Source: Chrysochromulina tobinii (taxonomy: Eukaryota > Haptophyta > Prymnesiales > Chrysochromulinaceae). From it: 41,996 nucleotides of DNA. The notes under the pieces are model-generated. The model was not told the DNA's origin. It did not search any database and worked only from the letters and a program-made list of their open reading frames with translations. Position numbers and translations under genes: made by a program. Positions within the stretch are counted from its first letter, which is position 1. Each line of letters begins with the position of its first letter. Positions 192 to 41,862 of the stretch are shown in pieces. The stretch spans positions 1 through 41,996 of the forward strand of contig JWZX01003061.1 in NCBI GenBank assembly GCA_001275005.1, given 5' to 3'.

Positions 192-3149
192 CTGCTCGAT
201 GTAGCGAGAGTCCAGATGTGCGTCGTCTTGGGCACGCGTTGAGGGGCGAGCGGTCCGTATGAGGTGAAGCACGCCGTAATGCTCCGCGAGCTCCTCCATG
301 CCCACCTGCCATCCATCGCACTCAGTCGCAATCAGTCGCACTCAGTCGCACTCAGTCGCACTCAGTCGCACTCAGTCGCACTCGAGGGTACTCAGGCAGG
401 CAGGCAGGTCGAAGGGCTCCCACCCGCCCTTAGAAGGTCATTAGAAGGTCATTAGAAGGTCATTAGAGGGTCATTAGAAGGTCATCAGAAGGTCATCAGT
501 CGAAGGGCTCCCACCCGCCCGTCGGCATTCTTCTTGAGCTCGGACCAGAAGAACTCAAACTCGCGCTCCCCCTGCTGCACCGCGAGCTTCTGCTGCCTCT
601 CTCGCTGAGTGGCCTCGTGCCGCGCCCTGGCGGCGAGCGCGCCGTCCCGGGCGCCACCCGCGTCGTGCTGGGCGTTCACCGCGGGCGCCGACGCCAACGG
701 CAGCACGAAGTACGCAAAGAACCTGCGGGGAGGCGATGGCGCGGTGGTGAGCACGTGCATGCATCCAGGAGCGGACCGACGGCCAACGGCCTCCCTTACT
801 TGGTGCGCAGCTCGGAACGGGAGATGGAGCCCTCGGCGTCGGCGTCGATTGCGAGCATCAGCCGTTGGAGAGAGACGACGGCGACCTCGTCCCTGCGAGA
901 TGCCACGCGCTGCCCAAGCGAGAACGGATGCATGCGCCGAGCCATCAGTGGCAATCATTACATCAATCAACAGCAATCATACAGCAATCATACAGCAATC
1001 AAACAGCAATCAAACAGCAATCATACAGCAACATAGAGCAATCAGAGGCCATCAGCACTCGTGGAGCTCACCTGCAGATCGATGAGCCCGTACGCGAGGA
1101 CGCAGGCGACGAGCGAGAGCGCAAAGGCAAGCAGCTTGGGCAGACGCTCCAAGTCCGCGAGCGCCGTGATGAGCGCGTGCGGCAGCGGCAGCGCCCCGAG
1201 CCATCTTGCGGCATCGAGCTCGAAGATCTCGAGAGCACTTGCGTTCACACTTGCGTTCACACTTGAGTTCACAAAGGAGTTCCCAATGGTGGGCGGGAAC
1301 AGCGAGCCGCTCATGGCTGCTGCGGCTGTGGCGGCGGCGGTGGCGGAGGATGCGGAGGAGGAGGCGGCGGAGGCGGCGGAGGCTGCGGTGGCGGAGGTGG
1401 CTGAGGTGCCGTCGATGCCAAACAGCAGTTGACCGAGGAGGGTGACCACCTCGGCGCGTGGGGCGAGGTACACGAGGGTGATCACCGAGAAGCCGAGGCA
1501 GACCTGCGCCATCAGAGGCATCAGAGGGTCATCAGAGGGTCATCAGAAGGTCATCAGAGGGTCATCAGAGGGTCGTCAGAAAGTCATCAGAAGGTCATCA
1601 GAAAGTCATCAGAGTGTGGAGAGGCCTAGGCCTTACCTTGGCTGGCGTGGCGGTGACACACGGGAATGTGAGTAGACGGTTGATGAAGAGTTGCACGCAC
1701 GTGCACACGAGCAGCAGATCGAGCCATCTGGCCAACGGCTCGTCCCACCATCGGGGCACCTGGTAAAGGTTGAGAGCAACGAGCCAGAAGATGGCGAGCC
1801 AGAGCGACCAGCTGAGCACGAGCAGCCCGATGGTCGTGGGGAGCCAATGCAGCCCGCGACGCTCCTGTGGGGGAGGGGGGCGCCGTGGTGAGCACTGGCA
1901 TGCGGCGGTTGCATGCTGGGGAGCCCATGCAGCCCGCGACGCTCCTCGTGACGAAGCTTCTGCTGGCGAAGCTCGTGACGAATCTGACGAATCTGACGAA
2001 TCTGACGAATCTGACGAATCTCTGTACCTCGTGACGAAGCTTCTGCTGACCCCGTAGGGCGCGCAAGGCGACACGGCCACCCTCGACGAGCGCGTCGTAG
2101 TGCCAGAGCAGCACGAAGGCGCCCCAGAGCAGCAACGAGCGCACGACGAACAAGAAGAACTCAAATGGGAACGTTGTGTGCGAGCCGGGGTAGAAGACGG
2201 CGCAGGCGTACGCGGGGCTGCTCGGGACGGCGCCTGCGAAGTCCTCGAGTCTCAGCTCGCCGTCGGAGGGCTGCGTGGCGCACACGAAGAGCTTGGCGAA
2301 GCCCACGCAGCCGGCGACGAGGCCCGAGGTGAAGAACTGGAGCTTCTTCGCTGTGACGATGAACTCGATGAGGCCGTACCTGATTAGGGAGGCCATCCGA
2401 AGTCATCAGAGGTCAACAGGGGTCATCAGAGGTCATCAGGGAGAGCCCAGGCAAGGTGGGCACGCTGCCACTTACTCGTCGAAGTCCGTAAAGTACTTTG
2501 CGGCTGCGAGAAGGATGACCATCACGTCGGAGACGCCGTACAGAGGAAAGAGGAAGAGGAGCCTGATGAAGAGCGAGAGCGGGCTGCGGATCGTGCCCCA
2601 GATGGTCAAATCGGACGGCTCCATCGCGTAGATCAGCCGGGCCGCGCACCACTTGAGCCAACCGCGCGGTGGATCGGCGTGGTGCATATCCTGCTTGGCG
2701 CGGAGCTCGCGGAATTCGAGGCCGAGGTCGAGCATGACCGAATCGACAAGAGAGCGCTTCACCTCAGGCCAGAGCTCGCCGTACACGTTGTCGACGACGA
2801 TGCGCACGGCTCGCGGCATGGCGTGGTCGTGCAGCGAGTTCAGCATCGTCGCGCCGATCGAGCTCATCATGCGGCTTGCCTGCAGGGCGATGACCTCATC
2901 GGCTTTTTGCATGCTGACGCGCCTTAGGGAATTGAAGCCCTGGTCCACGAGATTCTGCACTTCGCCCACCACTGGTATCTGGTTGATTACCGTCTCGTAC
3001 GCAATGGCCATATTGGCTTGGGCTTCGACAGCATGCCGAGCGGCAAAGTCGAAGAAAAGCTCATCCTCGGGTGGCGCGGCGGTGTTGCGCGGCCCGGTAA
3101 TCGTGGCCCACTCGGTCCGCGATGAAGGCTCTCGGTCGCGGGCGGCCAT
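177..3149 (-). CDS. Multi-pass membrane protein with an EF-hand, 7 or more exons, 3' end uncertain
   Basis: Exons in coding order: 3149-2476, 2379-2028, 1864-1637, 1503-1072, 909-800, 722-515, and 305 down to 192 or 177. All junctions keep frame (phases 2,0,0,0,2,0). About eight hydrophobic segments are seen, for example around IRLLFLFPLYGVSDVMVILL, FEFFLFVVRSLLLWGAFVLL and IGLLVLSWSLWLAIFWLVAL. After the last strong membrane block comes a helix-loop-helix with a canonical EF-hand loop (DADAEGSISRSE, about residues 580-591), so calcium binding is likely. The protein is a plausible channel- or transporter-like membrane protein, but I do not recognise the family. The start is the ATG at 3149 (MAARDREP); the frame stays open to an ATG at 3407, but that extension is Arg-rich low complexity. 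The last exon either stops at the TGA at 177 or uses a GC donor (CAG|GCGAGC, 191) into an intron that leaves the window; the 3' splice module at 1-56 favours the second reading. Confidence 0.7.
306..514 (-). repeat. Intron built from two tandem arrays
   Basis: This intron is 209 bp (GT at 514, AG at 306). The sense strand has an 11-bp array of the form CTTCTAATGAC / CTTCTGATGAC (about 430-500) and a 10-bp array GACTGAGTGC (about 318-385). The donor-side segment GGGCGGGTGGGAGCCC, which spans the exon end and the splice donor, occurs a second time in the middle of the intron (about 407-428). Confidence 0.75.
723..799 (-). repeat. 77-bp intron carrying the 3' splice module
   Basis: GT at 799, AG at 723. 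The 3' part reads GGATGCATGCACGTGCTCAC, then a C-rich tract and CGCAG, and matches the modules at 1-56, 1865-1912 and 40654-40705. This is the only copy without a tandem array upstream, so it may be close to the minimal element. Confidence 0.75.
910..1071 (-). repeat. Intron with 11-bp TGATTGCTGTA array
   Basis: 162 bp, CAG|GTGAGC donor at 1071. The acceptor GGGCAG|CGCGTG at 910 is chosen over the later CTCGCAG because only it keeps frame. The sense array TGATTGCTGTA / TGATTGCTGTT covers about 955-1035. Confidence 0.75.
1504..1636 (-). repeat. Intron with 11-bp CTCTGATGACC array
   Basis: 133 bp, AAG|GTAAGG donor at 1636 and GCAG acceptor at 1504. About nine units of CTCTGATGACC / TTCTGATGACC fill nearly the whole intron between donor and acceptor. 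Confidence 0.85.
1865..2027 (-). repeat. Composite intron: 9-bp array, copied intronless exon junction, 3' splice module
   Basis: 163 bp, GAG|GTACAG donor at 2027 and CACAG acceptor at 1865. From the sense 5' end it holds a (GATTCGTCA)n array at about 1978-2022. Next comes a segment at about 1918-1972 that joins the last ~21 nt of the upstream exon directly to the first ~27 nt of the downstream exon, without a gap. Last is the GCATGCCAGTGCTCACC module and a C tract (1865-1912). Confidence 0.8.
2380..2475 (-). repeat. Short intron with CTGATGACC array
   Basis: 96 bp, donor GA|GTAAGTGG at 2475, acceptor CCTCCCTAATCAG|GTAC at 2380. It holds four imperfect units of CTCTGATGACC. The acceptor block recurs in introns of the transporter and exostosin genes. 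Confidence 0.85.
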
Positions 3150-3855
3150 CTGTATCGAAACGATTGTGGCAAGCGGAGAGGAGCAAGAGAGGTTCCGCCG
3201 CCGCCACCGCCGCCGGCGTGAGCGAGACGCTCTTGCCCGAAAGAGGTGAATGGACAAAGAAGGAAAAAAGGGTTCTGCACTGCGAACATGTTTTCCCACG
3301 GTGTTTTTGAACCGAGAACTCACTGAGAACTGTCCTGTACACAGGCTCTGCCTGTGTCTTGGTGTCTGTAACGAGAGCCAGCGTGAGGAGGAGAGAGGCC
3401 GATGCACTGACCGAGCTCAGTGCGAGCGCCGAGCGGGAGCTCCTCAAGGTTCTCAAGGGATGTTTATCTCCCTTCTAGCGCATGTTCAAACCCAAATTCA
3501 CACCATGCGGCGAGGATCCTCAAGGTCGACGCAATCCCCTGAGGCGCGCGACCCCGCTCGCGCGCTACGCACATCTGTCTGATATGTGCGCGACGCGACC
3601 CGCCGGTCCAGGTAACGACCAGGCGGCGCAAGCCTGTTTCGTTATCTCTTATCTGGACTACAATGTAATACAAATTACCGTTCCCGGAGTCTTTTTTCCC
3701 AAACCCCGGCGTCTTTTTACCGGTACGGTACCGCTTTGGGCGAGAAGGCGTCTCGCAATCGCCTTTGGTGCTACTTCTGTGGTACCGGAGGGCGAGGCGT
3801 GTCGGGACGGGACGGACGCACGCGGCGAACCGGACCTGCGCCGCTGCGCCGCTGG
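3150..3855. other. Divergent intergenic region with a foldback-element remnant
   Basis: This 706-bp region separates the membrane-protein gene (-) from the FkbM gene (+). The open frames here are Arg-rich and low complexity and look like shadows. The clearest structure is a partial foldback arm at 3675-3735. No convincing TATA box or other promoter motif was seen. Confidence 0.5.
3675..3735 (+). mobile_element. Partial MITE-like foldback arm
   Basis: It contains CCCGGAGTCTTTTTT and then CCCCGGCGTCTTTTTACCGG followed by TACGGTACC. This matches the right arm of the complete element at 8299-8474. It lies just upstream of the methyltransferase gene and may serve as its leader or promoter. Confidence 0.55.
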
Positions 3856-4889
3856 ATGGAGCGCCGGGATGTGCACGCGCGCAGGTTCGCACTGTTTGGC
3901 CTCCTTGCCGGCCTGCACGCGCAGAACCCCTGCGAACCGCGCGTGCAGGCTATGTATGCTGCATCTGGTCATCCGCCCGTCATGTGCGGTGACGCCGAAA
4001 AGGAGCAAATGGAGGTGGCGCGCCGTTGGAAGGGCGCGACTCCGGCGCATCGCCGTCGGTGGCGCAATCCGAAAGCCTGTCCCAGAGAGACCAACTTTAG
4101 CACACTCGAGCAGCTGTGGCCAGCTGGGCATTTTCGCGGCCCACTGAATGGGCCGAGGAGCTACTTTAGGCGAGTGCCCCCTCACTTCCTCGGATACCAC
4201 GCTAACTTCTCCAACTGCCGCCGGAAGGTTTATATCGACATTGGAGCGAAACACTTCGACTCCAAGGAAGGTTTCCTCTCAATGTTGAAGTTGTACACGC
4301 CGCTCCTCGACTTTGATGAGTATTACGGTAGGACTCCTCACAGCAATCTCCCATATCGGAATCACGCTCGCTCGCTGGCTGTGTGACGTTCGCTGGATCG
4401 AGTCTCGCACGACCCCGCCCAGCCTTTGAAGCCGTCGCTGGCTTTTACAAGCTGCCGCCGCACGACGAGCTCGTGCGCCTCCTCATTAAGCAGGGCATGC
4501 ACCCCACCCGTGCGGCAACCTTTTCGCGTCGCCACTTCTTCCTGCAGGCGTTCATTGGGTCTCGCTCGAAACCAGAGACGACGCCTTCGACGATCGGCTT
4601 CTCTGACTTTTTGGAGACGACGCTCGGCCTGCAGCCAGCAGACGCGGTCGTCGTCAAGATGGACGTGGAGGGGTATGAGTTCGACATCGTGCAGACGCTG
4701 CTTGCCGACGGGACGCATGCGCTCATTGATGAGATCATGCTTGAGGTGCACTATGGCCATCCTTACATGAGGCAAACGTACAACTGGTGCCGCACACCGC
4801 AGTTCTGGTGCTTCTACACGTTGGAGAACGCCACGAGCATGTACCAGTCGCTCAGAGACGCGGGTGTCTACGCGCATCACTGGCCGTGA
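3856..4889 (+). CDS. FkbM-family methyltransferase-like protein
   Basis: Two exons, 3856-4327 and 4423-4889; the intron is 95 bp (G|GTAGGA to CCCAG, phase 1) and has no array. The 312-residue product has a short hydrophobic N-terminus (FALFGLLAGL, about 11-20) that could be a signal anchor. It then shows the FkbM pattern: YIDIGA at about 126-131 (SAM-binding strand), FEAV at 159-162, KMDVEGYEFD at 236-245 and DEIMLEVHY after it. FkbM enzymes O-methylate sugars and other small molecules, so glycan methylation in the secretory pathway is a reasonable inference. The frame is open back to an ATG at 3736, but that extension starts at the edge of the foldback remnant and is Arg/Gly-rich, so 3856 is preferred. 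The next gene starts 128 bp downstream on the same strand. Confidence 0.75.
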
Positions 4890-5017
4890 TGGCGTTTATT
4901 GGTTCCTTCACCACACACCCATGTTATTCGTCATTCCGGTCTGAACCGCAAAGGCCGACGTTTCAGGAACTTCTGTACTGTGAATTCAGGAGGGTTACCG
5001 GTACGGCGCGGCCAACA

Positions 5018-6754: not shown

Positions 6755-6993
6755 ACACACGTGCCATGATACAAGTAAAGGCTAAAGGGCCAGGCCCGAC
6801 GATCGGATGAAACGAAATAGACTGCTGCGCGGTGCTGGTCAGGTCGGTCCGCCGCGCGGAGCCGCACGGCCGCATCGGCATTTTCAAGATTTGTTCATTA
6901 TTACACCAGTTTACCACGGGGTCGGGGAATAGCCAGGAGCAGTGGCGCAGGGCACGCTGCTGTGCCAGCCTCTGGAGGTACTGACAGCAGTAT
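6755..6993. other. Convergent 3' intergenic region
   Basis: 239 bp between two stop codons. It should hold both polyadenylation regions; no clear signal or repeat was seen. Confidence 0.5.
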
Positions 6994-8293
6994 TTACCGA
7001 TACCGTTTGGGATTGGTACTTGCCGTTTGGGATTGGGTTCGGTTTACAACGCGCGCCTTCGCCTTCGCCCTTGCCTCCTTGGCACGGATCGCCGCTGCCA
7101 TGACCGGGTCCATCGATCTCGCTTTTGACTCCGCCTTCAACTCCGCCGAGCAAGTTGGCACCTCCGCCGGCCACAGAATTGGCTTGCCTGCCTCCTCGAT
7201 GGGCATCTGATACCCCGGCCTCAAGAAGACCTGCTCCATGCCCTTGGGCGAGTAGTGCCGGTAGTTGCCGGCGCGCCAATACGCTGCGCTGCTATTCGTC
7301 TCCGCCGACACGACGTCAATCGTCACGCCGTGCTCACCGCCATGGTCGAGCTTAAGGGTCGACATGGCCTCGGGCTCATGGCCCTCAATGTCGAGGCTCA
7401 TAAAGTCGATGTGCTTGACCTTGTGCTCGTGCAGGATCGAGCGCAGCGTCCTGCACTCCATCTGCACAGGCTTTTTGTTTCTCGCGAGCCTGAGGTCGCT
7501 CTGCTGCTTCACAACCCGAGCAGCGCCGCCGTGGAATGAATCAGGGAGGATCATCTCAATCGTTTTGGCCGCGTCTGAGACGCAGCTGGGGACGAGCGTG
7601 CACTTGCGCTCAGCTCGAATGCGCTCGTGGTGCACCGGATTGGGCTCGATGCAGAGGCCACGCCACCCCAGGCATTGCTCGAGAAAGTACGTGTTGCTCG
7701 CCCACATGGCATCGTTGGATGCGAGGTCAACAAAGAACCCAGGCTCTTTCCGATACTGAGCGTGGTTCTGCCAGATCCACCAATCCTGCCAGTGGTTGGG
7801 GATACGAGCATGCGCGCCGCGCGCGCGCGCTCAGAGCACGCCAGTGGTGCAAGTATGCAAGAGCGCATACCTGGCCCCATTGCGACACGAAGTTGGGTAC
7901 GTCGCGGTCGTAGCCCGTCATACGAAGAGTCTTCTCCGTCCCGCCGTGAAGAGGCCTGTTGGCGTTCGGAATGATGCTCCTCCAACTGGCGTGGCATGGC
8001 TTGTTTGAAGCACTCGCCTGCACCGCAAGCAGTTCGGCGCACCACTTTGCAGCGGGAGTGGCCATCAATGCTGATAACGAGGCGAGAACGACGTAGGCTA
8101 AGGCCAGTAGGCCAACCATGGTCAATAAACCAACAAGCAAGGGGCAAAACCAGCTTTTGCATGACACTCCCGTGCAGGCATCCTCCAGGGCTAGGTCCGC
8201 TGTTCCGTCGTGAAGCGGGCTCGAAGGCGGAGTTGCAGCCTCCTCCAGTCCGCATTGCGCAGTCGAGGACGCATCACGTTTCGTGTGCGACAT
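6994..8293 (-). CDS. Single-pass membrane FkbM-family methyltransferase
   Basis: Two exons, 8293-7871 and 7785-6994, phase 0; 404 residues. The intron is 85 bp and contains a (GC)n run but no CTGAT array. Residues about 48-77 form one transmembrane segment after a short hydrophilic N-terminus, which suggests a type II Golgi protein. The catalytic region reads FFVDLASNDAMWASNTYFLE (from about 158; SAM site), GLCIEPNP (184-191) and IDFMSLDIEGHE (267-278), all typical of FkbM domains. The C-terminus is a basic Ala/Lys-rich tail ending in a short TQSQTASTNPK repeat. The substrate is unknown, probably a sugar. Convergent with the SGNH gene 239 bp away. Confidence 0.85.
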
Positions 8294-8298
8294 GAGGC

Positions 8299-8474
8299 GT
8301 TACCCGGTACTATGTACAGTACCGGTAAAAAGACACCGGGGGGCGAGCCGGGACACACACGGGACACGCGGACGCACAAAGGCACAGTACCGGTAGTGCG
8401 TGTGTCCGTTTGTCCCGTGTGTGTCCCGGCTCCCCCCGGTGTCTTTTTACCGGTACCGGTACTGTACCGGTAAC
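8299..8474. mobile_element. MITE-like foldback element, complete
   Basis: About 176 bp with near-perfect inverted arms of roughly 50 bp. The left arm begins TACAGTACCGGTAAAAAGAC (8315) and continues through CACCGGGGGGCGAGCCGGGA. The right arm ends CCGGTGTCTTTTTACCGG plus TACCGGTACTGTA (8466). It has no coding capacity. It lies between the FkbM start (8293) and the phosphoglycerate mutase stop (8551). Related arms are at 3675, 12519-12795 and 15795. Confidence 0.75.
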
Positions 8475-8550
8475 CAATATTGACTTATCTGCTGACCGCT
8501 CTACTTCTCTGTGAGTGGTCTCTCGCTTTTCGTCGTCCTTCGCGCGGGGC

Positions 8551-16132: not shown

Positions 16133-16185
16133 TCGCGCACTCGCACGCCATCACACGCGGCCCGTCCACACTCTTCATCTTCATC

Positions 16186-18759: not shown

Positions 18760-20015
18760 CTATAGCTTGTTGGATTGGACGTAGAGGTAGATGGAGAAGA
18801 AGGCAAGCGAGATGGAGTACCCGAAGATCTGTATCGTTGTCGCAGGCTCACCCATGATCACCACCGTATAGAGAACGAATGCCGCATTGCGACCGGTGTT
18901 AATGACCTTGAGTGTGACCGAGTTCGTCAGCTTGATGACTATGAAGGTGAGCATTGAGGCAACCACGCCGAGCAAAGATGAGGCGGTGAAGAGGATGGGG
19001 TGTGCCGCCATCGTGGCGAAGCCGCCCTTTTCCCGAAACTGGGGCGCCTCGGTAAACAGCGCGCCGACCAGCAAGAAGGCGGCCGCTGTTGGCGCGAAAA
19101 AGTACCTGATGAGGGAGGTACTCAGTGGTCATCAGTTGGCTTTCAGCGGCCTTCGGTGGCCTTCGGTGGCCTTCAACGGCCCTAATAAGGAAATCAAACG
19201 CAATCAGCGCACTGCGACTCGAGGACCCCTAGCTTGAAGTTCTTGAGCAGCCGCTGCAGTAGGACGAGGCGCGTCGCCTCGGCAACGATGCCTACGCTCC
19301 GGAACGCCATCCCGATCAGGCTGAGCTGCCCCTCGCCGTAGCTCGCGATGGCACACCCCAGACCGATGAGACACACACACACGGTCGCACGTGTTGTCGG
19401 TATCTCAACGCCAGTCACGTACAGGAGCACGAGCGTGACCGTCGGTGTGAAGGATGCGAGCATCTGCGTCAGCGTGATCGTCAGGTACATGTACGCCGCG
19501 TTCGTCATGGCAAAGGTGAGACCCTGCGCCGCACCGATTGGGATCATGTTCCACAGCCAGAACTGGAACGTAGTACTGCCGATGCCGCCTTCGGCCGCCT
19601 CGCCTCCCCCGGACGCTTTCGGCGTGGTGATCGGCACCGGCTCGATGCCAAGCTTCGGTGCGGTCGTCGCGCGGGGCTTTGTCCATCGCCGCCACAGTCG
19701 CTCCACGCGTGGCTGTAAGTGGATGACACCGGCGCAGTAAAACGAGGTCACCACCTGACCCAGCGCGGAGAGAAAGAGCGGGAACGGAAAGTGCAGCTCG
19801 TTGAGGATGCGAGCGTTCACTAGCACGAGCGTCGGGCCGACGAGCGCGTATGTCGTGCAAGCAGCGAACACCTTGAGCTGTTGCTGCACAGCAGTAGCCT
19901 TGGTGACCGCGCTGCTGGAGCCGCTATTCAGCGGTTGAGTCTCGTTCTCGGTTTCGTGATCACTGCCCACCTTCTCGTAATAACCACCGGGAGGATTGTG
20001 AGACATTATGCGCAT
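18760..20015 (-). CDS. Sugar-phosphate / nucleotide-sugar transporter (TPT/DMT superfamily)
   Basis: Two exons, 20015-19213 and 19105-18760, phase 2; 382 residues. After a hydrophilic N-terminus (about 1-45) there are some ten hydrophobic helices. QGLTFAMTNAAYMYLTITLTQ matches the conserved region where TPT proteins read FALTNAALxYxxVSFTQ; LESQYFFAPTAAAFLLVGAL (spanning the splice junction) matches the MYYAP segment; and VTLKVINTGRN matches the LTLKVLGxxK motif. By family it exchanges a sugar phosphate or nucleotide sugar across a Golgi, ER or plastid membrane. No transit peptide is seen, so Golgi/ER is more likely. A second ATG lies 9 nt downstream (20006). The loop after helix 3 is enlarged and Pro/Gly-rich (about 110-145). 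Confidence 0.88.
19106..19212 (-). repeat. Transporter intron with GGCCTTCGGT-like repeats and CTGAT motifs
   Basis: 107 bp, donor CA|GTGCGC at 19212, acceptor CCTCCCTCATCAG|GTAC at 19106. The sense strand holds three or four GGCCACCGAA / GGCCGCTGAA units, then CTGATGACC and CTGAGTACC. The acceptor block is nearly identical to those at 2380 and 38119. Confidence 0.8.
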
Positions 20016-24261: not shown

Positions 24262-27200
24262 TTATTCGGTGGGCGATTTCGGGATAGAGAGCGGCGGAGG
24301 TGCTGGAGTTTGAGCGCTTTCGAGGCTGAGTTGCTGTGCGGTTGGGCTGAGCCTCGCGAGCATCCCCTGGGCAGCCATTCCCGCTTTGGCGGTGCCGCCA
24401 ATTGTCGAGGTTGGCGTGGCCGCCGCTGGCTTACCGCCCGTTGGCGTGGCCTTGCTCTTGGCGGAAATCGGTCCACTCAAGATCTTTTTCAGTTCCTTGT
24501 AGTTCAGCTTGCCACCGCCGTCTGAATCCCACAGGTTGAACAGCTCATAAACGTCTAGCTTGGGCACGTCGATGCCAAGAGCCGGGAACGCGTTCTCGAA
24601 TTCGGCTTTCGATACCTCGCCATCGCCGTCCCGATCCCACGAACGGAAGAGGTCCATGACGCGTGTCGATTGCGACTTGAGCACATCTGCCAGCTGGTCG
24701 GACATCGGTCCGTCTGCCGGGTCCAGTTTTCTCAACTTCTTCTTCTCGGGTGGCGGCTTACCGCTCAGAAGCTTCTTCAGCTCCTTGGGCGCAAGGGAGC
24801 CACCGCCGTCAGCATCCCACATGTCGAAGAGTTCGTCGACGTAGCATTCGTCGACCACAATGCCGAGCGCGGGGATGGCCTTTCGGAACTCGGCTTTCGA
24901 TACCTCACCGTCTCCATCTTTATCCCACGATCGGAAGAGGTCCGTCACACGCGCCGACTGTGATGCCAAAGCCGCGGCAATCTGCTCGGGCATCGTGCCC
25001 TTGCCGCTGAGCTGGAGGCCCACAACCTTCTTTGGAGGTGGCGGAAGCTTGGCTTTCAGTGCCGCGATTTCCTTGACCATGGCGGCCGCAACTTCCTTGG
25101 CCTGCTTTAGGTCTGCCTGCAGGGACACAATTTGCTGCTGATTGCGCACGAGGTCGACTGCCACCTTTTCGCGTTGCTCCGCGAGCAGTGAGCGCAGCAT
25201 CTCTTCAGCTTGCACCTGTTGGTTCCTCAGATGCACCTTCACCGTGTCACGCTCCTCTTCGGCTGTCTTGAGTGACTCTCTAGATACTCTGAACAGCTCC
25301 TGCAGCTGCACGTAGGCTTGGCGCTCGTGATCAGCCGTGGCAAGGGCAGCCTTTTTGGCTTCAATATCATTGGCCTGGTAGTTGACCTTCTGGCGCAGCG
25401 ATCGGAGCTCGTCCTCCATCGCAAGCTTGACCATCGAAAGCTTGCCAGCCTCGAGGGCCTTCGCGCGCAGGTTCTCCTCGAGCTCGGCTCGCTTCTTGAG
25501 ATCCGCCTCGTGCTCGGCTTGCCTCTTGAGCTCACGCGTTTCTCGCTCCCACCACCCGAATGCAGACGAGAGTGCAGGGTTGCCCATGCGTCCGCCGGCT
25601 TTGCGCATGAGTCGCTGATGGTAGTTCTTTTCTTCCCACCAATCTAACCACGCCTGCCAGCCACGCGTAAGATCCAAGTTGATCATCCGCCGCATCAAGC
25701 TCTTCTGCATCTGGTTGATGCGCGCCTCCTTCTCTCGCGCGAGCTCGGCACTCATCTCGGCATTGTGGGTGCCGAGCAGCTCCTCGAGCTGAGCCTCGAG
25801 CGCTTGTCGTTTTTCCCTCTCAAGCATCGCGATCTTGCGAGCCATCTCCGCCTTGAGATCCTCGAGCTGCTCCTCGAGCCCGGCGACCGTGCGGGATTGA
25901 GCCTCCTCTTTTCGGCGTTGCTCGACTTGTTCAGCCTCCCGTTCGGCTTGCTCCCAGTCCTCGAGCCAGTGATGAAAGGCAGCCGATCGTTCGGGTTTGC
26001 TCAAACGGCTTGCAGCCGCCTGGAGCTTGCGCTTCTGAACTACCTTCTCCTCCCACATGCAGAACCAGGACGTCCATCCACGAGCAAGGTCCTTGCGCAT
26101 GATGCGGTTCGCGATCATCTCGCAAAGGTGCTTGATGCGTTGCTCCTTCTCGCGCTCCTCCTTTTCGAGTTGCGCCTTGAGTGCCTCTTCAGCTGCTGCA
26201 GTGCCGCCATCGAGTAGAGTGAGCTTCGCCAGCATCTCGGCACGCGCTGCTTCGGCAACCTCGACCTTTCGCTTGCACTCCTCCTGCACGCGCTTGAGGT
26301 CGTCTTGAAGGGAAGCCAGGGCACCCCGGTGCTCCTCGCGCTGCATCGCGACCTTCCTCTTCTGCTTTTCAGTCTGCCAGTCCGAATGCCAGAAGGCATA
26401 GGTAGCTGCCAGCTCGGGCTTGCGCAGGCGGCTGGCAGCGGCCTGCAGCTTGCGAAGTTGCGTCGTCTTCTCCTCCCACATGTCGAACCATGCCATCCAG
26501 CCTCGCGACAGATCCCTGCGCATGATGCGACGAGCGATCATACTGCAAAGGTGCTCCACGCGTTTCTCTTTTTCCTGGGACACTTTCTCCAGCGCCTTGA
26601 GCTCTGCCTCCGCCATGCCTCCATCGAGCGCAGTGATGCGCTCAAGCAGGTCACGATTCTTCGCCTCGGCAACGTCAACGCGCCGCTGCAGGTCGAAGCG
26701 CACGCGCTCGAGCTCAGCGTGCGCAGCGCCTGAGTCGCCTTCCAGTGCTGCGACGCGCTGCGCGTACGCTTTGCGCTCGGCAGCCTTCTGCGCAGAATCC
26801 CACGATTCCTTCCAATGCCTGAAAGAAGCGGAGCGCTCGGGCATGCGCAGCTTCGAAGCTACCTTCTGCAGCTGGCGCCGCTGGTACACCTTTTCCTCCC
26901 ACATGCCTTGCCAAGCGGTCCATCCACGAGACAGATCCTTCTTCAGGATGCGGCGAGCGATCATCTGGGACAAGTGCTTCACGCGTTTCTCCTTCTCCTT
27001 CTCCTCCTTCTCCTTCTGCTCCTTGAGCTGCAACTGGAACGCGCGCTGGGCCTGGGACATCTCCGAGTCCCGCTCAGCCGCTTTGCTGAGCAGCTCGGAC
27101 TCAGCAGCCTTCTGCTTTGCGGTCAGCTCTTTGATCTTCAAGTCCGCCTGGTTCAGACCACCGTTGAGTTGAGCGAGCTGGTTTTTGTAGAGATCACGCT

Positions 27201-29902
27201 CCTTCTTCATGGCATCGAGTTTGATTTGATACTCGTTTCGGACGGTGATCAACTCTGCCTTGAGCTGAGTGACGCCCTGATCGAGCGAAGCCTCCTTCTG
27301 CTGATGCAGCCGCTCGCTCTTGTTGTGTCGCGCCTCGATTGAGTACGATGCCCACGTACCGAAGAAGTTTGCAAGCTCGGGCGACTTCATCCGGCTCGTC
27401 GCCGCCAAAAGCCGCCGCTTGAAGATCACCCTCTCCTCCCACATGCCGTGCCATGCGGTCCAGCCGCGAGCCTGATCCTTTTTGAGGATGCGGCGAGCGA
27501 TCATCTCTGTCAGTTGCTTCACGCGCAGCTTCTTCTGCCGATCGAGCTCCTCTTGGTGCGCCCGTTGCTTCGCTTCGAGATCACCACCTGCCTGGCCAAG
27601 AAGCTCCCGAAGCTTGTCACGCTCCCTGGTCAGCGCGTTGATCTCGTCGGCAGACTCGGAACGCACCTGAGCGAGTTCCGCACGCAGCTCCGCGACTCCC
27701 TGACCCAGCATTGCCTCGTTCTGCTGATGCAGCCGCTCGCTCTTGTTGTGTCGCGCCTCGATTGAGTACGATGCCCACGTACCGAAGAAGTTTGCCAGCG
27801 CGGGATTCTTCATCCGGGCCGCTGCAGCCTGCAGCCGCCGCTTGGCGGTCACCCTCTCCTCCCACATGCCGTGCCAGGCGGTCCAGCCGCGAGCCAGATC
27901 CTTTTTGAGGATGCGGCGAGCGATCATCTCGGACAGGTGTTGAACGCGTTTTTCCTTCTCCTTCTCCTCCCTTTCACGTTGCTCGATCAACTGCTGCTGG
28001 TATGCGGCCATGCCGCCGTCATACTCTGTAAGCTTTTTCATCAGCGCCGCTGACTTGCTCTCCGCGAGGCCGAGTTTTGTCTCGAAATCTGCGCGCTGGC
28101 GAGAGAGCTCCGCACGCAGCTCCGCGACTCCCTGATCGAGCGAAGCCTCCTTCTGCTGATGCAGCCGCTCGCTCTTGTTGTGTCGCGCCTCGATTGAGTA
28201 CGATGCCCACATACCGAAGAAGTTTGCCAGCGCGGGATTCTTCATCCGGGCCGCTGCAGCCTGCAGCCGCCGCTTGGCGGTCACCCTCTCCTCCCACATG
28301 CCGTGCCAGGCGGTCCAGCCGCGAGCCAGATCCTTTTTGAGGATGCGGCGAGCGATCATCTCGGACAAGTGCTTCACGCGCTGCTCTCTCTGCCGTTGAA
28401 GCTCCTCTTGGTGCGCCCGTTGCTTCGCTTCGAGATCACCGCCTGCCTGATCCAGCCGCGCACGCAACTCATCGCGCTCCTTCACCACGGTCTGGAACCT
28501 CTTCTCAAACTCCACGCGGACCCGGTTGAGCTCATCCTTCAGCCCCTCGGCACCGTCGGTGAGGAAGGCCTCGCGCATCTTGAGCTGCATCTGCTTTGCC
28601 TTGTCCACGGCTTTCTCCCAGTCCTGACGCCAGAATGCATATGCGGCGGAAGTCTCCGGCGCACGCAGCTTGTTGGCGACCCTCTGCATCCTCTGCTTTT
28701 GGATGACCTTCTCCTCCCACGTCGTGTACCAGGCTGTCCATCCTCGGCCAATGTCTTTGTTCATGATGCGTCGCACGATCTGCCGCCGCAGCAGCTCGAT
28801 GCGCTCCTCTCTCGCCTTGGCCTCCTGCTCTGCGAGTAGGCGCTCCTTCTCCTCAACGCTGCCGGTGAGCCCCTCGAGCTCCGCGGCCAACTCCTGCCGA
28901 GCCTGCTCCGAGGCGGCGAGCCGCACCTCGTAGTGCTCGCGGAGCTTACGTAGCTGTTCTTCCAGGTACGTCACTCCGCCCGCTGCCAAGGCTTCGCGTT
29001 CTCTCGCCTTAGCCATCGCCTCCTTGATCCTCGTCTGATCCCAGTCATGTTTCCACGTGCCATAGGCGAACGACATCGCAGGTTTTATAAGCCGCATCCC
29101 CGCCCTCCGGATGAGTGCCGAATTGCGGGTGCGCTCCTCCCACATGACGTACCACGCCGACCAGCCGCGCGTGATGTCTGCATTCATCATCCTCCGAGCA
29201 ACCTGACGGCGAAGCAAATCGACCCGAGCTTGCTTCTCGCGCTCTTGGAGAGCCTTAGTCTCTTGCTCGAGAGCTGAGAGCTCATTCATTGTGCCCTGTT
29301 GCGCCATTATGGACTGCTCTTGAGCCTCCTTGCGCACCCGCGCCATCTGGGCCTCCATCTCTTTGCGCCACGCGCGAATCGCCTCTTCATCCTCCCTTGA
29401 GGCGCCGCTTCTCCTCGATCTGGTATTCGTGACGCTCCTTGCGCTCCCGCGACAGCGTTGTTACTGCCCGGCTGAGCGCCGACTCGAGCTCACGCACACG
29501 CTTCCGCAGCACAGCACGCTCTTCGGCCCCGGACATCTCGTATGCTTTCGTGACGGACGGAGACAGCAGCGACCCTTGTTGCACCGCACTCGACGACAAC
29601 CCCGCGGCTGGCATACTCGCAATACTCGCAATACTCGCAGGCGTGATCGGGCGCATACTCTCTCTGGTGAGGGGGCGTGATTCTGGTGACCCAGAGCGTG
29701 ACCCGGGCGACCGTGTGGCCATTTGCAGAGCAGGGAGTGATGCCACGCTAGTCAAACTCCGAGTGTACGGAGACGCAGAGTGAGACCGTAGCGGCGCCCA
29801 GTCTTTTCGCGTCTTCTCGCGCAGCGCCTTGTTCAACTCGTCATGCTGAGAGAAAACGCGCATGATGATCGTTTCAATGTGGCCTTCGGAACGGGAGGCC
29901 AC
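24262..29902 (-). CDS. Giant coiled-coil protein: nine Sfi1-like Trp modules plus four centrin-like EF-hands (apparent frameshift)
   Basis: About 1,880 residues in two overlapping frames: 29902 to about 29396 (169 residues, Ser/Pro-rich then coiled coil) and about 29393-24262 (1,710 residues). One extra G in a GGG run at 29394-29396 separates them; removing it continues the coiled coil as EKRRLK then EDEEAIRAWRKE. The body has nine modules of ~60 residues, each with RR-x6-D-x2-RGW-x-AW-x3-WEE and then L-x-A-A-x-R-x4-P-x5-F-x2-W-x3-W, separated by charged coiled coil. The Trp/helix pattern is like Sfi1 repeats, which bind centrin. The C-terminus has four EF loops (DKDGDGEVSKAE, DADGGGSLAPKE, DRDGDGEVSKAE, DSDGGGKLNYKE; about 24505-24940) in LFRSW / LFDMW contexts like centrin. 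I infer a calcium-responsive basal-body or cytoskeletal fibre protein. Confidence 0.8.
27301..28378 (-). repeat. Recently duplicated modules within the coiled-coil gene
   Basis: Modules 3, 4 and 5 (Trp motifs at about 28307, 27868 and 27450) are close copies. Segments starting at 28156, 27724 and 27301 share long identical runs; the first two differ at only one or two positions over some 200 bp. The offsets are 432 and 423 bp (144 and 141 codons). Confidence 0.85.
29394..29396 (-). other. Candidate frameshift (GGG run)
   Basis: On the coding strand, CTCAAGGGAGGATGAAGAG brings a TGA into the upstream frame. Dropping one G joins the two long frames and keeps the coiled-coil chemistry. It may be a sequencing error, a real frameshift or, less likely, an unrecognised tiny intron. 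Confidence 0.6.
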
Positions 29903-36193: not shown

Positions 36194-38603
36194 ATGCTCG
36201 ACCTCAATCGTCGATCTGTCGCCGTCGCTGCGACGGCGCTCATGGCCGTCGTCATCGTCTGGACCCGCCAGCCGGCTTCTTCATCAGCACCCGCGTCTTC
36301 TCCATCTACCACAGCCGCTCCTGCTCACCAAGATATACACCGCGCCATCTCCGAAGCCGTGCTGGCCGTTAGTCAAGGCGGAGCGGGCAGCGGGGCTGAT
36401 TCTGCAATGGACGAGGCTGTTCGCTTGTTGTCGGCGCTACGGACACGAATTTCAGCGTCTTCGGTGGAGACGGTGCAAGGCGAATCACCAAAGACTGGCC
36501 ACAATGAACATTTGCTTTGGCCGCCGGCTCCGCCATCTGCTGGGTCCGACCTAATCTCAGAACCGCCGATCGCTCAGTCGCTGGGCGCGCCCGTGCCGCT
36601 ATCGACGCCTTCGCCATATCCCCCGCCACCACCGGTCGCAAGGTCCTCTTCAGCTGCCATGCCTGCAGCGTCTGTTGCGCCCGCCTCGCCGCAGTCTGCA
36701 GTGTCCCGCTTCCTACGCCACTCGCCAGCACTGCTGCGGCTACACGCGCATGCCACGCAGCTGCGGCTGTACGTCTACGAGCCGCCCCTTTCCGCCGGCT
36801 GGTCGGCGCGCAATCTCACGCGCAGCTTCCCGCGCTGCGCCACCTTTCAGTGGAGTGGAGATGCAGAGTTGACGGAACGGATACGCACCCACCCGACGCT
36901 CGCCACTACCGACCCCTCGCGTGCGGATTATTTCGTGGTGCCCTTCCTCTCCAAGTGCTACTTCAACTACGTGGCCAAGTACCGGCTCGCGCCTATGGAC
37001 AACACGCTGCACGCGGTCCTCAGCTACCTAAAATGGAGCGGACCGTGGTGGTCGCGCCATCCTGAGCGTCATCTCTTCTTCTTCATGAGTGGTGCGCGGA
37101 CTTGATTGCGACTGATGGCATTCTTCATGAGTCGTGCGTGGACTTGATTGCGACTGAAGGCATTCTTCATGAGCGGTGCGCGGACTTGATTGCGACTGAT
37201 GGCATTCTTCATGAGTGGTGCGCGGACTTGATTGCGACTGATGGCATTCGATGGCGTCGGATGGCGTCCGACGGTGCATGATTGCCTCCACTTGATGGCT
37301 TCTGATGGCCTCTGATCACCTTTGTCGTCCTCCAGGTGTCGGCGCGGGCATAGTGCCCTCCTGGCGGCGCTCCCTGCAGCAGAGCGTCTTCATAGTCGCC
37401 GAGGGCGATAGGCAAGTGGATTACTTCCGCGAGGGCCACGACATCGTAGTGCCGGGCAAGGCGAGCATGGCCCTCTGAGTGCCCTCTGATTGCCCTCTGA
37501 TAGCCCTCTGATGACCTCTGATTGCCTTCTGAGTACCTTCTGATTTCGATTTCCCTTTGATTGTCCTCCGTAGCCAACTGATTACCCTCCGAGATTACCC
37601 CCGAGATTGCAGGTGAGCACCCACCACAAGCGTGAGCAGAGGTCGCCGTTGGAGCGCAAGTACATGGGGGTCTTCCGCGGATCACTCGATGCAGCGCTTC
37701 GCGACTCCGAGGGCGGGCGCGTGCGCAAGCGCAACAAGCTGCGCCGCTGGCTCGCCCAGACTCTGGAGGGCGATCGTGGCTTCATCTTCTCAGGTCGCAA
37801 ATCCAAACGGTATGCCGAGGAGACTGATGACTGATGACTGATGACTGATGACTGATGGCTGATGACTGATGACTGATGGCTGATGACTGATGACTGATGA
37901 CTGATGACTGATGACTGATGGCTGATGACTGATGGCTGATGGCTGATGACTGATGACTGATGGCTGATGACTGATGGCTGATGACTGATGACTGATGACT
38001 GATGGCTGATGACTGATGGCTGATGACTGATGACGGCCTGCCGAGGAGCCTGATGCCCTCGGATGGCGTCTGTGTGCGTCTGAGTGCGTCTGAGTGCGTC
38101 TGGTTCCCTCCTTCATCAGGTACGTCGACGAGATGGACAACTCTCGCTTCTGCATCATCCCGCGTGGCAACACACCGTGGACGCGTCGCTTTTTCGATGC
38201 GGTCGTGCGTGGCTGCATCCCGGCCGTGCTGTCCGACCCGGTGAGCTTTCCTTATGAGAGGCTCATCGACTTCCGAAACTTGACCATCAAATTGCCCGAG
38301 CAATGGACGCCGCACCTCGCGCGCGAGCTGCGTGCCGTGAACGCGAGCGCCATCGTGGCGCTCCACCGCAACTTGATGCGTCTCTGGCCTGCTTTCGTGT
38401 ATGACAGCGAGCGCGGCGGGTGCGCGTTCGAGATGCTACTGCTCGAGCTCGCTGCCCGCCGCCGACACTTTTATGACACGTGGCCCGCGGCCACTCCCAA
38501 CACGCCGCAGCACTTTTGGTCGCCCGTGCGCGGCGGCCTCTTTGAGTTGCCTGAGGCGCGCAAGGTCGGCCCCAGCTGGGGCGCGGGCGCATTGCCGCAT
38601 TGA
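36194..38603 (+). CDS. Exostosin-family glycosyltransferase (GT47-like), type II membrane protein
   Basis: Four exons: 36194-37091, 37336-37460, 37613-37809, 38120-38603; 567 residues, all junctions in frame. It has a short cytosolic N-terminus, one membrane anchor (about 8-24, VAVAATALMAVVIVW), a Pro/Ser/Ala-rich stem to about 170, then the exostosin domain: LRLYVYEPPL (190-199), SRADYFVVPFLSKCYFN, DIVVPGK, KYMGVFRG and, across the last junction, RKSKRYVDEMDNSRFCIIPR followed by GNTPWTRRFFDAVVRGCIPA. The last block is the usual donor-sugar region of GT47. Family members build heparan-sulphate, pectin or xyloglucan side chains in the Golgi; the donor and acceptor here are unknown. Intron 2 needs a GC donor (AAG|GCGAGC). 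All three introns are repeat-built. Confidence 0.88.
37092..37335 (+). repeat. Exostosin intron 1: 42-bp repeat that includes the exon end and donor
   Basis: 244 bp, donor AGTG|GTGCGC at 37092, acceptor CTCCAG at 37335. A unit of about 42 bp, TTCTTCATGAGTGGTGCGCG then GACTTGATTGCGACTGATGGCA, occurs four times starting inside exon 1, so the exon end and splice donor are copied with it. The 3' part holds further GATGGCNTCTGATG-type repeats. Confidence 0.85.
37461..37612 (+). repeat. Exostosin intron 2: GC-AG intron with 11-bp CTCTGATTGCC array
   Basis: 152 bp. The donor appears to be AAG|GCGAGCATGG, and the downstream exon begins GTGAGCACCC, a near copy of the intron start. The array CCCTCTGATTG / CCCTCTGATAG runs from about 37470 to 37560. 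Confidence 0.75.
37810..38119 (+). repeat. Exostosin intron 3: about 30 copies of the heptamer RCTGATG
   Basis: 310 bp, donor AAACG|GTATGC at 37810, acceptor CCTTCATCAG|GTAC at 38119. About 37823-38032 is an almost pure (ACTGATG / GCTGATG) heptamer array. TGCCGAGGAG followed by ACTGATG or CCTGATG flanks the array on both sides. The donor is fixed by frame; a nearer CAG|GTCGCA would shift it. Confidence 0.85.
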
Positions 38604-39045
38604 CGCGACGCCGAGGCCCGCGTATCGCGATGTCGCGATGACCTGATGTGCCTTAGTCCACTTTTTGCAGGCAACGGCCAAGAACGCACTTCGTTCTAGT
38701 TTTACGCACATGGTCCACAACTTCACGCTACGTTCCTACGTCCTCGCTGCGCGGCGTGTTCCGTGTAATGGGATCGGTCGTCGCACGGGAACACTCCAAG
38801 CATGTCGAGTCACACGGTCCGCCGGGCCCACCGCCAATCGCCTCTTCTGAGGAATGAGCCATTGAGGTATGTAGCTCGAACGATGTGGAGAACATGGTGG
38901 ACCTGTGCCTCGCCGGCGCATAAAATTTAAGGCGCGTTTGGCTTATTTAGGGGTTCGCAGTTCTGACCCCCACGTGCCACGACCTCGCTCCTCATTCCCA
39001 CAGATGGCGGGTGCATTCTAACATGCATGCCCACGCACATAAGGC
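38604..39045. other. Convergent 3' intergenic region, nothing seen
   Basis: 442 bp between the exostosin stop and the coiled-coil gene stop. No repeats or supported genes. Confidence 0.5.
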
Positions 39046-41862
39046 TCAAGCTGAAACAGATGTCCCGTCAGCGTCCCCATCGGACGCGTTTGCCACGACG
39101 CGCGTCCTCGGCAAGAACGACTCGCGCTGCCTGCGCACGACCTTGCCGATGCTGTTGACGCGGGGCTCCTCCTTCTCAGCCCTCTCTGGAGAAGGCTGTT
39201 GGCGCCACTGGCGGTTGGAGTAGAAGGCGAGCGCCTCGGCCTTGTGGCCAGCGGTGGGCGCCGCCGCGATGATGATGGAGCGGCGCTCGGCGCCCGCGGC
39301 CTCGGTAGAAAGCTGCTTGACTCGCCAAGGCATGTTGAGCCGAGTCGCGACCGCCATCTCCTGCGCGCGCGCCATCTCGAGCACTTTGGCCATCTCCTCC
39401 TGAGTCTGCGAGAGCGTCGCCTCCATGGCCGAGAGCGCGAGCCGCGCCGCGACGGCCTCGGCCTGCGCCCGCTCCTTCTCCTTCTCGAGCTCCTTTTCGA
39501 GCAGCGCGGCGGCCTGCGCCGCCGCTTGGGCCGCGGCCGCGGCCATACGTTGCTCCATGAGCTCCGCGGCCTGCGTCTGGGTCGCCGCGACCTCTGCCTG
39601 CAATGCGACGCGCTCCTCCGCCGCTTGAGCTCGAGAGCTCTCAAGCTGCGCGCGGAGGCTCGCGAGCTCCGCTTGCGTCGCCTCGAGCCTTGCGGCCGAT
39701 TGCACGCTGGTCGTGTTCAGCTGCTCGCGCACCGCCTCCAGAGCTGCCTGCGCAGCAGAGGCATTCTGGGCCGCTACCGCCGCCATGACCTCCGCCTCCT
39801 GTTTCTTGGCCGCCATGACCTCCGCCTCTTGCTGCTTGGCCGCCTCGCGACGCGCGAGCTCATCCAAGCACTCCCGTAGCAACGACTGGCTCTCATTGAG
39901 CTGATGACGGCTCTCATTGAGCTCCCTCGCCACCCGCCCCTGCTGCGAATTCGTCATCGCAAGCTCCGCTTTGCATGCGCCCAGCTGCGAATTCGTCATC
40001 GCAAGCTCCGCTTTGCATGCGCCCAGCTGCGAATTCGTCATCGCAAGCTCCGCTTTGCATGCGCCCAGCTCGGCGCTCCGCAACTCGAGTTGCGCGGCCT
40101 CTTGCTCGCGCCTTACCTTGAGGTCCGCGAGGACCGTCTCAAACTGCGCCTGGGACACCTCGAACTCCTTGACGAAACTCCACGCCTGCGCCTTGGAATG
40201 GAGGCAGGCCTCCAGCTCGGTTCGGACTGCCTGCAGCTGCACGTCGGTCTGGGCCTGCGTCTGCTTACTGGTGAGCAGCTCCGCGCGCACCGCATCGAGC
40301 TCCTCGCGCCTTGTCTGCAGCTCGGTTTCAAGCGTCCGCACGGTCGCCTCGAGGGCAGTTCCAGCGTCAAGGAGCGCCGCGGACCGCAGCTTCGAGGCGG
40401 CCAATTCGGCTCCAAGTTCGGCCAATTCGGCTCCAAGTTTGGCCAATTGCGCCTCGTGCTGGCGCGCCACCTCCGCCTGCTGCCGCGACTGCTGCCGCGA
40501 CGACGCCTCTGCTTGCGCCCGCGCCGCCTCCACAGCCTGAAGCGCCGCCGTCTCGGCGCGCCGCGCCGTGGCGAGCGCCGCCTCGGACTCGGCGCGCGTC
40601 GTTTGGAGAGTCGCCGCCGACTCGACGGACAACGTCTGCATGGCGAGCCGCACCTGTGGGGAGAGGGGTTCGGGCGCCGTAGTGAGCACTTGCATGCAGG
40701 CCTCGAGTCGACGGACAACGTCTGCATGGCGAGTGCCATGGCGAGCGCCGTCTGCATGGCGAGTCGCACCTCTAGAGCTCGACCAACCCAATCAGACGCA
40801 ATCAGACGCAATGAGACGCAATCAGACGCAATCAGACGCAATTCGTCACTGGCACCTCTGTCAGCTCGACCAATCCAATCAGACGCAATCAGACGCAATC
40901 AGACGCAATTCGTCACTGGCACCTCTGTCAGCACGACCAATCCAATCAGACGCAATCAGACGCAATCAGACGCGATTCGTCACTGGCACCTCTGTCAGCT
41001 CGACCTCCTTCGCGGCCACGAGCCTCTCGAGGGCTGCCTGGGCCTCGGCCAGCTGCGCCTCCTTCTCGGCCACCTGCCGGCTCAAGGCTGCCTGGGCCTG
41101 TGACGATTGCGCTTCGGTCGCCGCCACCCTCGCCTCGAGAGCCGCCTGCGCAGCGGCCAGGCTCGCCTTCTCCTCCACATTCCAGCGCAGCTCCTCCCGG
41201 GCCGCGGCCAGCTGCACCTCCTTCTCAGCCACCTGCTCGAGCAGCGCCGCTTGCGCCTTCGACGATTGGTCTCTGCTCTCGGCCAGCTTTGTCTCGAGAG
41301 CCGCCTGTGCCGCGACCAGACACGACGTCTCCTCTAAACTCTTGCGCAGCTCCTCCTGTGCTGCGGTCAGCTGCGCCTCTCGCTCGCCCACCATCTTCTG
41401 CAGCGCCTCCTGCGCCTCCGAGGACTGTGCTTGCGTCCGCGCCAGCCTCGTCTCGAGAGAAGCCTGCGCCGCCGCGAGCTGGGCCTCCTTGTCGGCCACC
41501 GTCCTCTCAAGGGCACGCTGAGCCTCCGATCGCTGCGCTCGCACCGTCTCAAGCTCCGCACGAGCGACCTCAAGCTGCTTTGCAGCCTCCGACTTGGACT
41601 TCGCAGAGGCTGCAAGATCGTCGCGCAGGTTCGCCACGTCGGCCTCTAGTGCGCGCCTTGCAGCTCGGAGTGCCTCGACACGCCCCTCCATCTCGGCGTA
41701 CACCCACTCCAACTTCTTATCGTTGAAGACTGTGACCGCATTCGGATCGAAGGGCTGCTCAGGCCCGTCCATGGCGACAACTCGGCCACGTGCCGTGGGT
41801 GTGCGGAGGATGGCTGGGCCCAAGAATGTTGTGCTCACCAGCAGCAGCATTGAAGAGACCAT
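39046..41862 (-). CDS. Long coiled-coil protein with N-terminal targeting sequence
   Basis: Two exons, 41862-40990 and 40653-39046, phase 0; 826 residues. It starts MVSSMLLLVSTTFLGPAILR, which looks like a signal peptide and could be the first part of a bipartite plastid-targeting sequence. About residues 60-710 are almost continuous heptad coiled coil, Ala/Glu/Gln-rich, with internal repeats: AQAALE-type units in exon 1, and three exact copies of a 14-residue unit (LGACKAELAMTNSQ) in exon 2. A basic, less regular tail follows, ending DGDADGTSVSA. No catalytic domain. An upstream ATG (41961) in the same frame would hide the signal peptide. The function is presumably structural; family not recognised. 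Confidence 0.75.
39943..40070 (-). repeat. Three exact 42-bp coding repeats
   Basis: A 42-bp unit (GCGAATTCGTCATCGCAAGC then TCCGCTTTGCATGCGCCCAG on the plus strand) is repeated three times without change, adding two heptads per copy to the coiled coil. Confidence 0.9.
40654..40989 (-). repeat. Composite intron: exon-end repeats, CTGATTGCGT array and 3' splice module
   Basis: 336 bp, donor ACAGAG|GTGCCAGTG at 40989 and acceptor CCCCACAG|GTGCGG at 40654. From the sense 5' end it has three copies of a ~65-bp unit that begins with the exon's own last bases (GTCGAGCTGACAGAG), each containing (GCGTCTGATT)n. Next comes a segment repeating the first ~35 nt of the downstream exon (CTCGCCATGCAGACG, TTGTCCGTCGA). 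Last is the CTGCATGCAAGTGCTCAC module (40654-40705). Confidence 0.85.

What the first reader, a model, noticed from the sequence alone, without database searches (positions are those of the whole stretch)
306..40989. Introns made of sense-oriented arrays of a branch-site-like motif
Eleven fully contained introns in four genes are largely tandem repeats or carry a repeated 3' module; ten have arrays. Units vary (7, 9, 10, 11 and ~42 bp), yet most contain a CTGAT, CTGAG, CTAAT or TGATT core on the sense strand, whether the gene is on the plus strand (37092-38119) or the minus strand (306-2475, 19106-19212, 40654-40989). CTGAT/CTGAC fits the yUnAy branch-site consensus, so each intron offers many branch-point candidates. 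The (GATTCGTCA)n array at 1978-2022 is the exception. Two introns of otherwise similar genes (4328-4422, 7786-7870) have no array. The strand bias and shared core across unrelated genes suggest selection or a common origin rather than random satellite growth.
Basis: partly seen in the sequence, partly recalled or inferred. Interest (0 to 1): 0.87.

Follow-up and report, generated by a model that had tools for sequence, protein, structure and literature searches.

The report
Introns built from mobile splice-site cassettes
In this algal genome many introns look as if a short piece carrying a ready-made 3' splice site was inserted into an exon, with about 30 bases of that exon copied to form the other half of the intron, and many of these introns then grew into repeats of a 10-base unit that resembles a splicing branch site.

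Summary
In detail: eleven introns in four genes, ten with arrays. CTGAT is the most self-spaced 5-mer in held DNA; three CTGATs at 10-bp period occur at 8,490 overlapping places genome-wide, reversed control 2. Of 27 array loci, 25 are sense to coding, none antisense, two unclear. The arrays belong to something larger. Two 3' cassettes recur through the 53-Mb assembly: A (GCATGCAAGTGCTCACCACGGCGCC, pyrimidine tract, CACAG; core 739 exact copies) and B (core TTGCSTCCCTCATCAGG; 1,105), controls 0. Many of these introns begin with a copy, median about 30 nt, of the start of the downstream exon, usually GT: 30 of 48 A sites and 18 of 48 B sites, against 3.5% of 1,500 other YAG|G sites. Best reading: introner-like insertion of a cassette carrying branch-like site, pyrimidine tract and AG, with a long target duplication supplying the 5' splice site; CTGAT units then expand locally. 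Splicing rests on homology (8 of 9 junctions gap-free), not RNA. Branch-point use, empty sites and the insertion enzyme are untested. New variant of a known kind (introners).

The parts
192..3149 (-). Gene for a membrane protein with EF-hand-like end; exons 2476-3149, 2028-2379, 1637-1864, 1072-1503, 800-909, 515-722, 192-305 (last one continues into a cut intron)
   Evidence: 706 open codons after joining; homologs P0150-P0153; weak EF-hand match below Pfam cut-off
2380..2475 (-). Intron 1, 10-bp array 2389-2439, ends in a cassette-B-like CCCTAATCAG
1865..2027 (-). Intron 2: (GATTCGTCA)n array 1976-2021, exon copy of 28 nt (27 identical), cassette A 1865-1903
1504..1636 (-). Intron 3, 11-bp CTGATGACCCT-type array 1510-1614
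910..1071 (-). Intron 4, 11-bp TGATTGCTGTA-type array 951-1044
723..799 (-). Intron 5, no array, cassette A 723-762
306..514 (-). Intron 6, 11-bp array 430-496 and 10-bp array 316-383
1..191 (-). Cut intron with array 80-168 and cassette A core 23-46, runs off the window
19106..19212 (-). Intron of transporter-like gene, 10-bp array 19137-19174, cassette B 19106-19120
   Evidence: splicing judged from sequence only
36194..38603 (+). GT47 exostosin-like gene, exons 36194-37091, 37336-37460, 37613-37809, 38120-38603
37092..37335 (+). Intron 1, 42-bp units that contain a copy of the upstream exon end plus CTGAT
37461..37612 (+). Intron 2 (GC-AG), 11-bp array 37470-37545
37810..38119 (+). Intron 3, 7-bp GACTGAT array 37822-38034; start GTATGCCGAGGAGA matches exon start GTACGTCGACGAGA at 11 of 14; cassette B 38105-38119
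40654..40989 (-). Intron of coiled-coil-like gene: 67-bp units (copied segment plus 10-bp CTGATTGCGT array), exon copy, cassette A 40654-40697
   Evidence: splicing judged from sequence only

Best explanation
These introns are products of introner-like insertions. The inserted unit is a short 3'-splice-site cassette. Cassette A is about 42 bp: GCATGCAAGTG-CTCAC-CACGGCGCC (branch-site-like CTCAC), a pyrimidine tract and CACAG. Cassette B ends TGATTGCCTCCCTCATCAG and is often preceded by CTGATGACCT-type units. Insertion into an exon leaves a direct duplication of target, typically 20-35 bp. When the duplicate begins with GT (sometimes GC) at the junction, its upstream copy becomes the 5' splice site and first half of a new intron, the cassette becomes the second half, and splicing restores the message. 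Inside such introns CTGAT units, and sometimes exon copies, expand by local tandem duplication, giving sense-only arrays. Shown: cassettes, copy numbers, exon copies, orientation, local homogeneity. Inferred: that the cassettes moved, the order of events, CTGAT/CTCAC as branch points, and the chemistry (variable duplication length would fit target-primed reverse transcription or fill-in of a staggered break; not resolved).
For: Exact core copies 739 (A) and 1105 (B), reversed controls 0. Cassette A has a sharp 5' edge over 54 copies. Copy of the downstream exon start at 30 of 48 A and 18 of 48 B sites; permuted 1.0% and 2.7%; 52 of 1500 other YAG|G sites; 12 of 20 B sites with at most one mismatch. 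Copies start GT in 34 of 48, GC in 7. In 20 of 48 the exon before the copy does not end in AG, so the AG there belongs to the cassette. 39 of 48 copy-bearing introns would frameshift or stop if kept. Cassette sites are sense: A 40 sense, 1 anti, 7 unclear; B 34, 6, 8. B sites within 1.6 kb of an A site share its strand, 15 of 15; farther ones 6 of 23 (the 16 contigs in both listings). Junctions gap-free in homologs: 3 of 3 and 5 of 6.
Against: No exon copy seen at 18 of 48 A and 30 of 48 B sites. A motif-blind scan of direct repeats shows no enrichment of the splice-site arrangement (4 of 276, control 8 of 276). 12 of 48 joined junctions have a stop within 90 nt in the best frame. 11 of 48 copies lie directly behind an AG of cassette type, so are better read as tandem duplications of exon plus cassette. 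Two antisense calls of B-like matches with two or fewer mismatches remain. No empty sites, no RNA data, no candidate enzyme. The held DNA is enriched for A.
Confidence: 0.7

Rival explanations
1. Local tandem duplication alone: a segment spanning the 3' end of an existing intron and the start of the next exon is duplicated in tandem, as reported for a potato RdRp gene, making new introns and arrays without a mobile unit.
For: 11 of 48 exon copies lie behind a cassette-type AG; arrays are locally homogeneous; passages of PMC4974935 describe this route.
Against: The other copies follow ordinary exon, and the same two cassettes sit at hundreds of places in different genes, which local duplication does not explain.
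Confidence: 0.13
2. Capture of filler DNA at staggered double-strand breaks: the break is filled in, giving the direct repeat, and a fragment is ligated in.
For: Direct repeats of variable length flank the insert; passages of PMC3443670 give this model for Daphnia.
Against: Filler would be varied; here it is two recurrent cassettes with fixed ends and one orientation. It could still be the joining step for a mobile cassette.
Confidence: 0.12
3. Neutral minisatellite growth inside introns, with no shared origin and no role.
For: Arrays are tandem, of many periods, and homogeneous within loci.
Against: 25 of 25 callable loci are sense; one core and one period dominate genome-wide; shared 3' cassette.
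Confidence: 0.04

Closest known systems
Introners that carry the 3' splice site and take the 5' splice site from the target duplication (Symbiodinium microadriaticum, Fig. 2B legend of PMC9860276)
   Same: Repeated insert supplies the AG; duplicated target supplies the GT; message restored
   Different: There 4-bp duplications and inverted ends; 3-9 bp is given for earlier families. Here the copy is about 30 nt and no clear inverted ends were seen in A
Chrysochromulina sp. introner family (Fig. 2C legend of PMC9860276)
   Same: Haptophyte host likely; direct repeats; no inverted ends
   Different: That family carries the 5' splice site and recruits the 3' one, the opposite design
Intron gain by tandem exon duplication (Rogers model; PMC4974935, PMC3443670)
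   Same: First half of the intron is a copy of exon and the message is unchanged
   Different: A shared foreign cassette lies between the copies
Intron gain at staggered double-strand breaks (Daphnia; PMC3443670)
   Same: Insert flanked by direct repeats
   Different: Here the same two cassettes recur hundreds of times
Amoebophrya introners (PMC7789003)
   Same: Repeated introns with direct repeats in a protist
   Different: 3-5 nt repeats, 8-20 nt inverted repeats, non-canonical splice sites

Membership tests
Introner elements | Many near-identical intron sequences at different gene positions of one genome | tested here: met
   739 and 1105 exact core copies; only the 3' half is shared
Introner elements | Copies lie in genes in splicing orientation | tested here: met
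   A 40 sense, 1 anti, 7 unclear; B 34, 6, 8 of 48 each; the anti calls were read and look mostly like chance matches
Introner elements | Target site duplication (present in some families) | tested here: met
   30 of 48 A, 18 of 48 B; about 30 nt, longer than the 3-9 bp of earlier families
Introner elements | Terminal inverted repeats (present in some families) | tested here: inconclusive
   Read by eye only: none seen in A; B starts near CTGATGA and ends TCATCAG, 7 bp, no statistic
Introner elements | Presence/absence between relatives | not testable with these tools
   The genome has no relatives here
Tandem-duplication introns (Rogers model) | Intron consists of duplicated exon only | tested here: not met
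   A shared cassette lies between the copies
Reverse-splicing introner-like elements of fungi | No target duplication | tested here: not met
   Exon copies found
Minisatellites | Tandem, locally homogeneous units | tested here: met
   0.86 within, 0.55 between contigs, 32 arrays
Minisatellites | No strand preference relative to genes | tested here: not met
   25 sense, 0 antisense, 2 unclear of 27 loci
Branch sites | Lariat formed at the CTGAT or CTCAC adenosine | not testable with these tools
   Only motif, position and usual U2 sequence

The most novel reading that the evidence does not exclude
A class of intron-making element that carries only half an intron: a portable 3' splice site of about 42 bp whose insertion itself makes the other half by duplicating about 30 bp of exon. 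The long duplication may be needed to reach a spliceable length, since 40 of 48 copy-bearing introns are 64-94 nt. Branch-site-like decamer arrays are the expanded bodies of the second family. This would join the tandem-duplication and introner routes of intron gain in one process, perhaps not run by a known transposase type.
Probability: 0.38. Interest if true: 0.9.

Novelty: new variant of a known kind. Interest (0 to 1): 0.75.

Why it matters
How new spliceosomal introns arise is an old question with few cases in which source and insertion trace can both be read. Here many introns of one genome still show the target copy, the cassette and the restored frame, so the mechanism, the minimal 3' splice signals and the growth of branch-site-like arrays could be tested directly. 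The arrays also form a natural series for asking whether the number of branch-site candidates matters.

Tried and rejected
Viral origin: IMG/VR scans gave 14 (A core) and 1 (B core) stretches. Only L058 shows a whole cassette A with CACAG|GT, at the very end of a contig whose reading frames look phage-like by eye; I take it as a probable chimera, not proven.

Motif-blind search for exon duplications: no enrichment, 4 of 276 against 8 of 276 in the control.

Organism: the taxid of one hit is Coccolithus braarudii; other named hits are Prymnesium parvum and a MMETSP transcript, so a haptophyte is likely. Chrysochromulina tobin has a similar assembly size, N50 and G+C (passages of PMC4580454); identity was not tested.

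Antisense classes: 7 antisense cassette calls (6 B, 1 A) were read and look mostly like chance fuzzy matches, but two B-like ones with two or fewer mismatches stay unexplained. Three antisense intragenic arrays have periods 12 or 21 and may be coding repeats; not proven.

Literature: searches in the open-access library listed no report of this design; I read only part of the listed papers, and subscription papers are not covered. Seen: passages and section 7 of PMC9860276; passages of PMC4974935, PMC3443670, PMC7789003, PMC12768974, PMC4580454; abstract and outline of PMC11782384; the rest as listings.

Outputs were cut, so some rows were not seen by eye.

Full report
What was checked. The window is contig C1902 of an unnamed assembly of 53,154,812 bases in 2,253 contigs. 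Homologs point to a haptophyte. The eleven introns and their arrays are present as described.

Are they introns? For the GT47 gene, joining exons 36194-37091, 37336-37460, 37613-37809 and 38120-38603 gives one open frame. Five of the 29 homologs found were aligned, among them a MMETSP transcript and Prymnesium parvum; all five run gap-free across the three junctions. For the minus-strand membrane-protein gene, six introns removed give 706 open codons. Of its four homologs, P0150-P0152 are gap-free at five of six junctions; near the junction at aa 342 the window protein is one residue shorter. P0153 is not informative beyond the third junction. The other two intron-bearing genes were judged from sequence only.

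More than chance. Held DNA is 304 kb: the window, 20 contig starts taken at even steps, and 30 loci chosen for cassette A. In it CTGAT leads the 5-mers in self-spacing at 7-13 bp, with a peak at exactly 10. Genome-wide, three CTGATs at period 9, 10, 11 and 12 occur at 39, 8,490, 1,128 and 557 places; reversed controls 0, 2, 3, 5. Four at period 10: 5,204 places, control 0. These are overlapping places, so arrays are fewer.

Orientation. Of 27 loci with at least three CTGATs 7-12 bp apart, 25 are sense to the flanking coding strand, none antisense, 2 unclear (contig starts 7 of 7 sense, cassette-A loci 15 of 15, window 3 of 5). One unclear locus, 37485-37522, lies in the GT47 gene and is sense there. 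An earlier, looser count in the contig starts gave 9 sense and 3 antisense intragenic arrays, plus 8 unclear of which 3 leaned each way. Strand calls come from a codon model that is right for 405 of 460 windows of its own training frames.

The larger structure. The A of CTCAC is the same in all 54 and lies a median 28 nt from the splice site in 44 copies with a nearby YAG|G. The core occurs 739 times exactly, control 0. Many array introns end in a second module, TGATTGCCTCCCTCATCAG: 1,105 exact copies of TTGCSTCCCTCATCAGG, control 0. The window has four cassette A cores, one of them in the cut intron at its start, and three B-like ends.

The exon copy. Upstream of the cassette lies a copy of the start of the downstream exon that begins at the splice junction. 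Example from C37: GATCGC[GTACGTCATGTGGACACGTGGCCTCAACTTCCTTG]CATGCAAGTGCTCACCACGGCGCCATCACGTCCCCACAG[GTATGTCATGTGGACACGTGGCCTCAACTTCCTTG]ACG. Such a copy was found at 30 of 48 A and 18 of 48 B sites, against 1.0% and 2.7% after permuting exons and 52 of 1,500 other YAG|G sites. For B with at most one mismatch it is 12 of 20. Median length is 29.5 nt (26 A) and 30 nt (17 B), median identity 96%; a few of the longest are tandem duplications. The copy starts GT in 34 and GC in 7 of 48. In 20 of 48 the exon before the copy does not end in AG, so the AG there is carried by the cassette. 40 of 48 such introns are 64-94 nt long. Kept in the message, 39 of 48 would frameshift or stop; of the 34 whose length is not divisible by three, 27 have the better downstream coding score in the spliced frame.

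Results the other way. 12 of 48 joined junctions have a stop within 90 nt in the best frame. A motif-blind scan of direct repeats saw no enrichment of the splice-site arrangement (4 of 276, control 8 of 276). 11 of 48 copies lie behind a cassette-type AG and are better read as tandem duplications of exon plus cassette. Seven cassette calls were antisense; most look like chance matches, but two B-like ones with two or fewer mismatches remain.

How it most likely works. Shown: cassettes, copies, orientation, homogeneity. Inferred: a cassette with branch-like site, pyrimidine tract and AG inserted into an exon and duplicated about 30 bp of target. Insertions whose duplicate starts with GT or GC at the junction restore the message and persist. 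As the cassette is only about 42 bp, a duplication of 20 bp or more may be needed to reach a spliceable length, which would explain why long duplications are seen. Arrays are then local growth: spacer identity is 0.86 within arrays and 0.55 between contigs, 32 arrays. The intron at 40654-40989 shows nested growth, 67-bp units of copied segment plus array, then an exon copy, then cassette A. B sites within 1.6 kb of an A site share its strand, 15 of 15; farther ones do in 6 of 23 (16 contigs present in both printed lists), as expected if both sit sense in genes.

Branch-site reading. CTGAT and CTCAC fit yUnAy (recalled consensus), the position of CTCAC is suitable, and the U2 snRNA found in the genome carries GUAGUA. 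This is compatible, not proof. Introns 1865-2027 and 723-799 have no CTRAY but do have cassette A's CTCAC, so arrays are not required.

Relation to what is known. The design resembles introners that carry the 3' splice site and recruit the 5' one from the target duplication, but with a copy of about 30 nt instead of the 3-9 bp given for earlier families; the Chrysochromulina family shown in the same paper has the opposite design (PMC9860276). The tandem-duplication model explains the copied half but not the shared cassette. I rate this a new variant of a known kind.

Noticed in passing
L058:4330-4554: A whole cassette A followed by CACAG|GT, with an array between two copies of a segment, at the end of an IMG/VR contig that otherwise looks phage-like; probably a chimeric assembly.
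   Followed up: partly
L049:3041-3206: A 48-bp tandem repeat whose unit contains the reverse of the cassette A core: cassette plus neighbouring sequence amplified together.
   Followed up: no
genome-wide: Array units of period 10, 11 and 12 often begin CTGAT followed by G or T, A or G, then C, a longer core than a branch site needs; protein binding is possible.
   Followed up: no
window 27271-28449: A 432-bp tandem repeat, 2.8 copies, inside the long minus-strand frame 24262-29358.
   Followed up: no
window 3600-3800 and 8300-8480: Repeated TACCGGTAC-like words and a mirrored stretch around GACACACGGGACA between genes, perhaps promoter or repeat elements.
   Followed up: no
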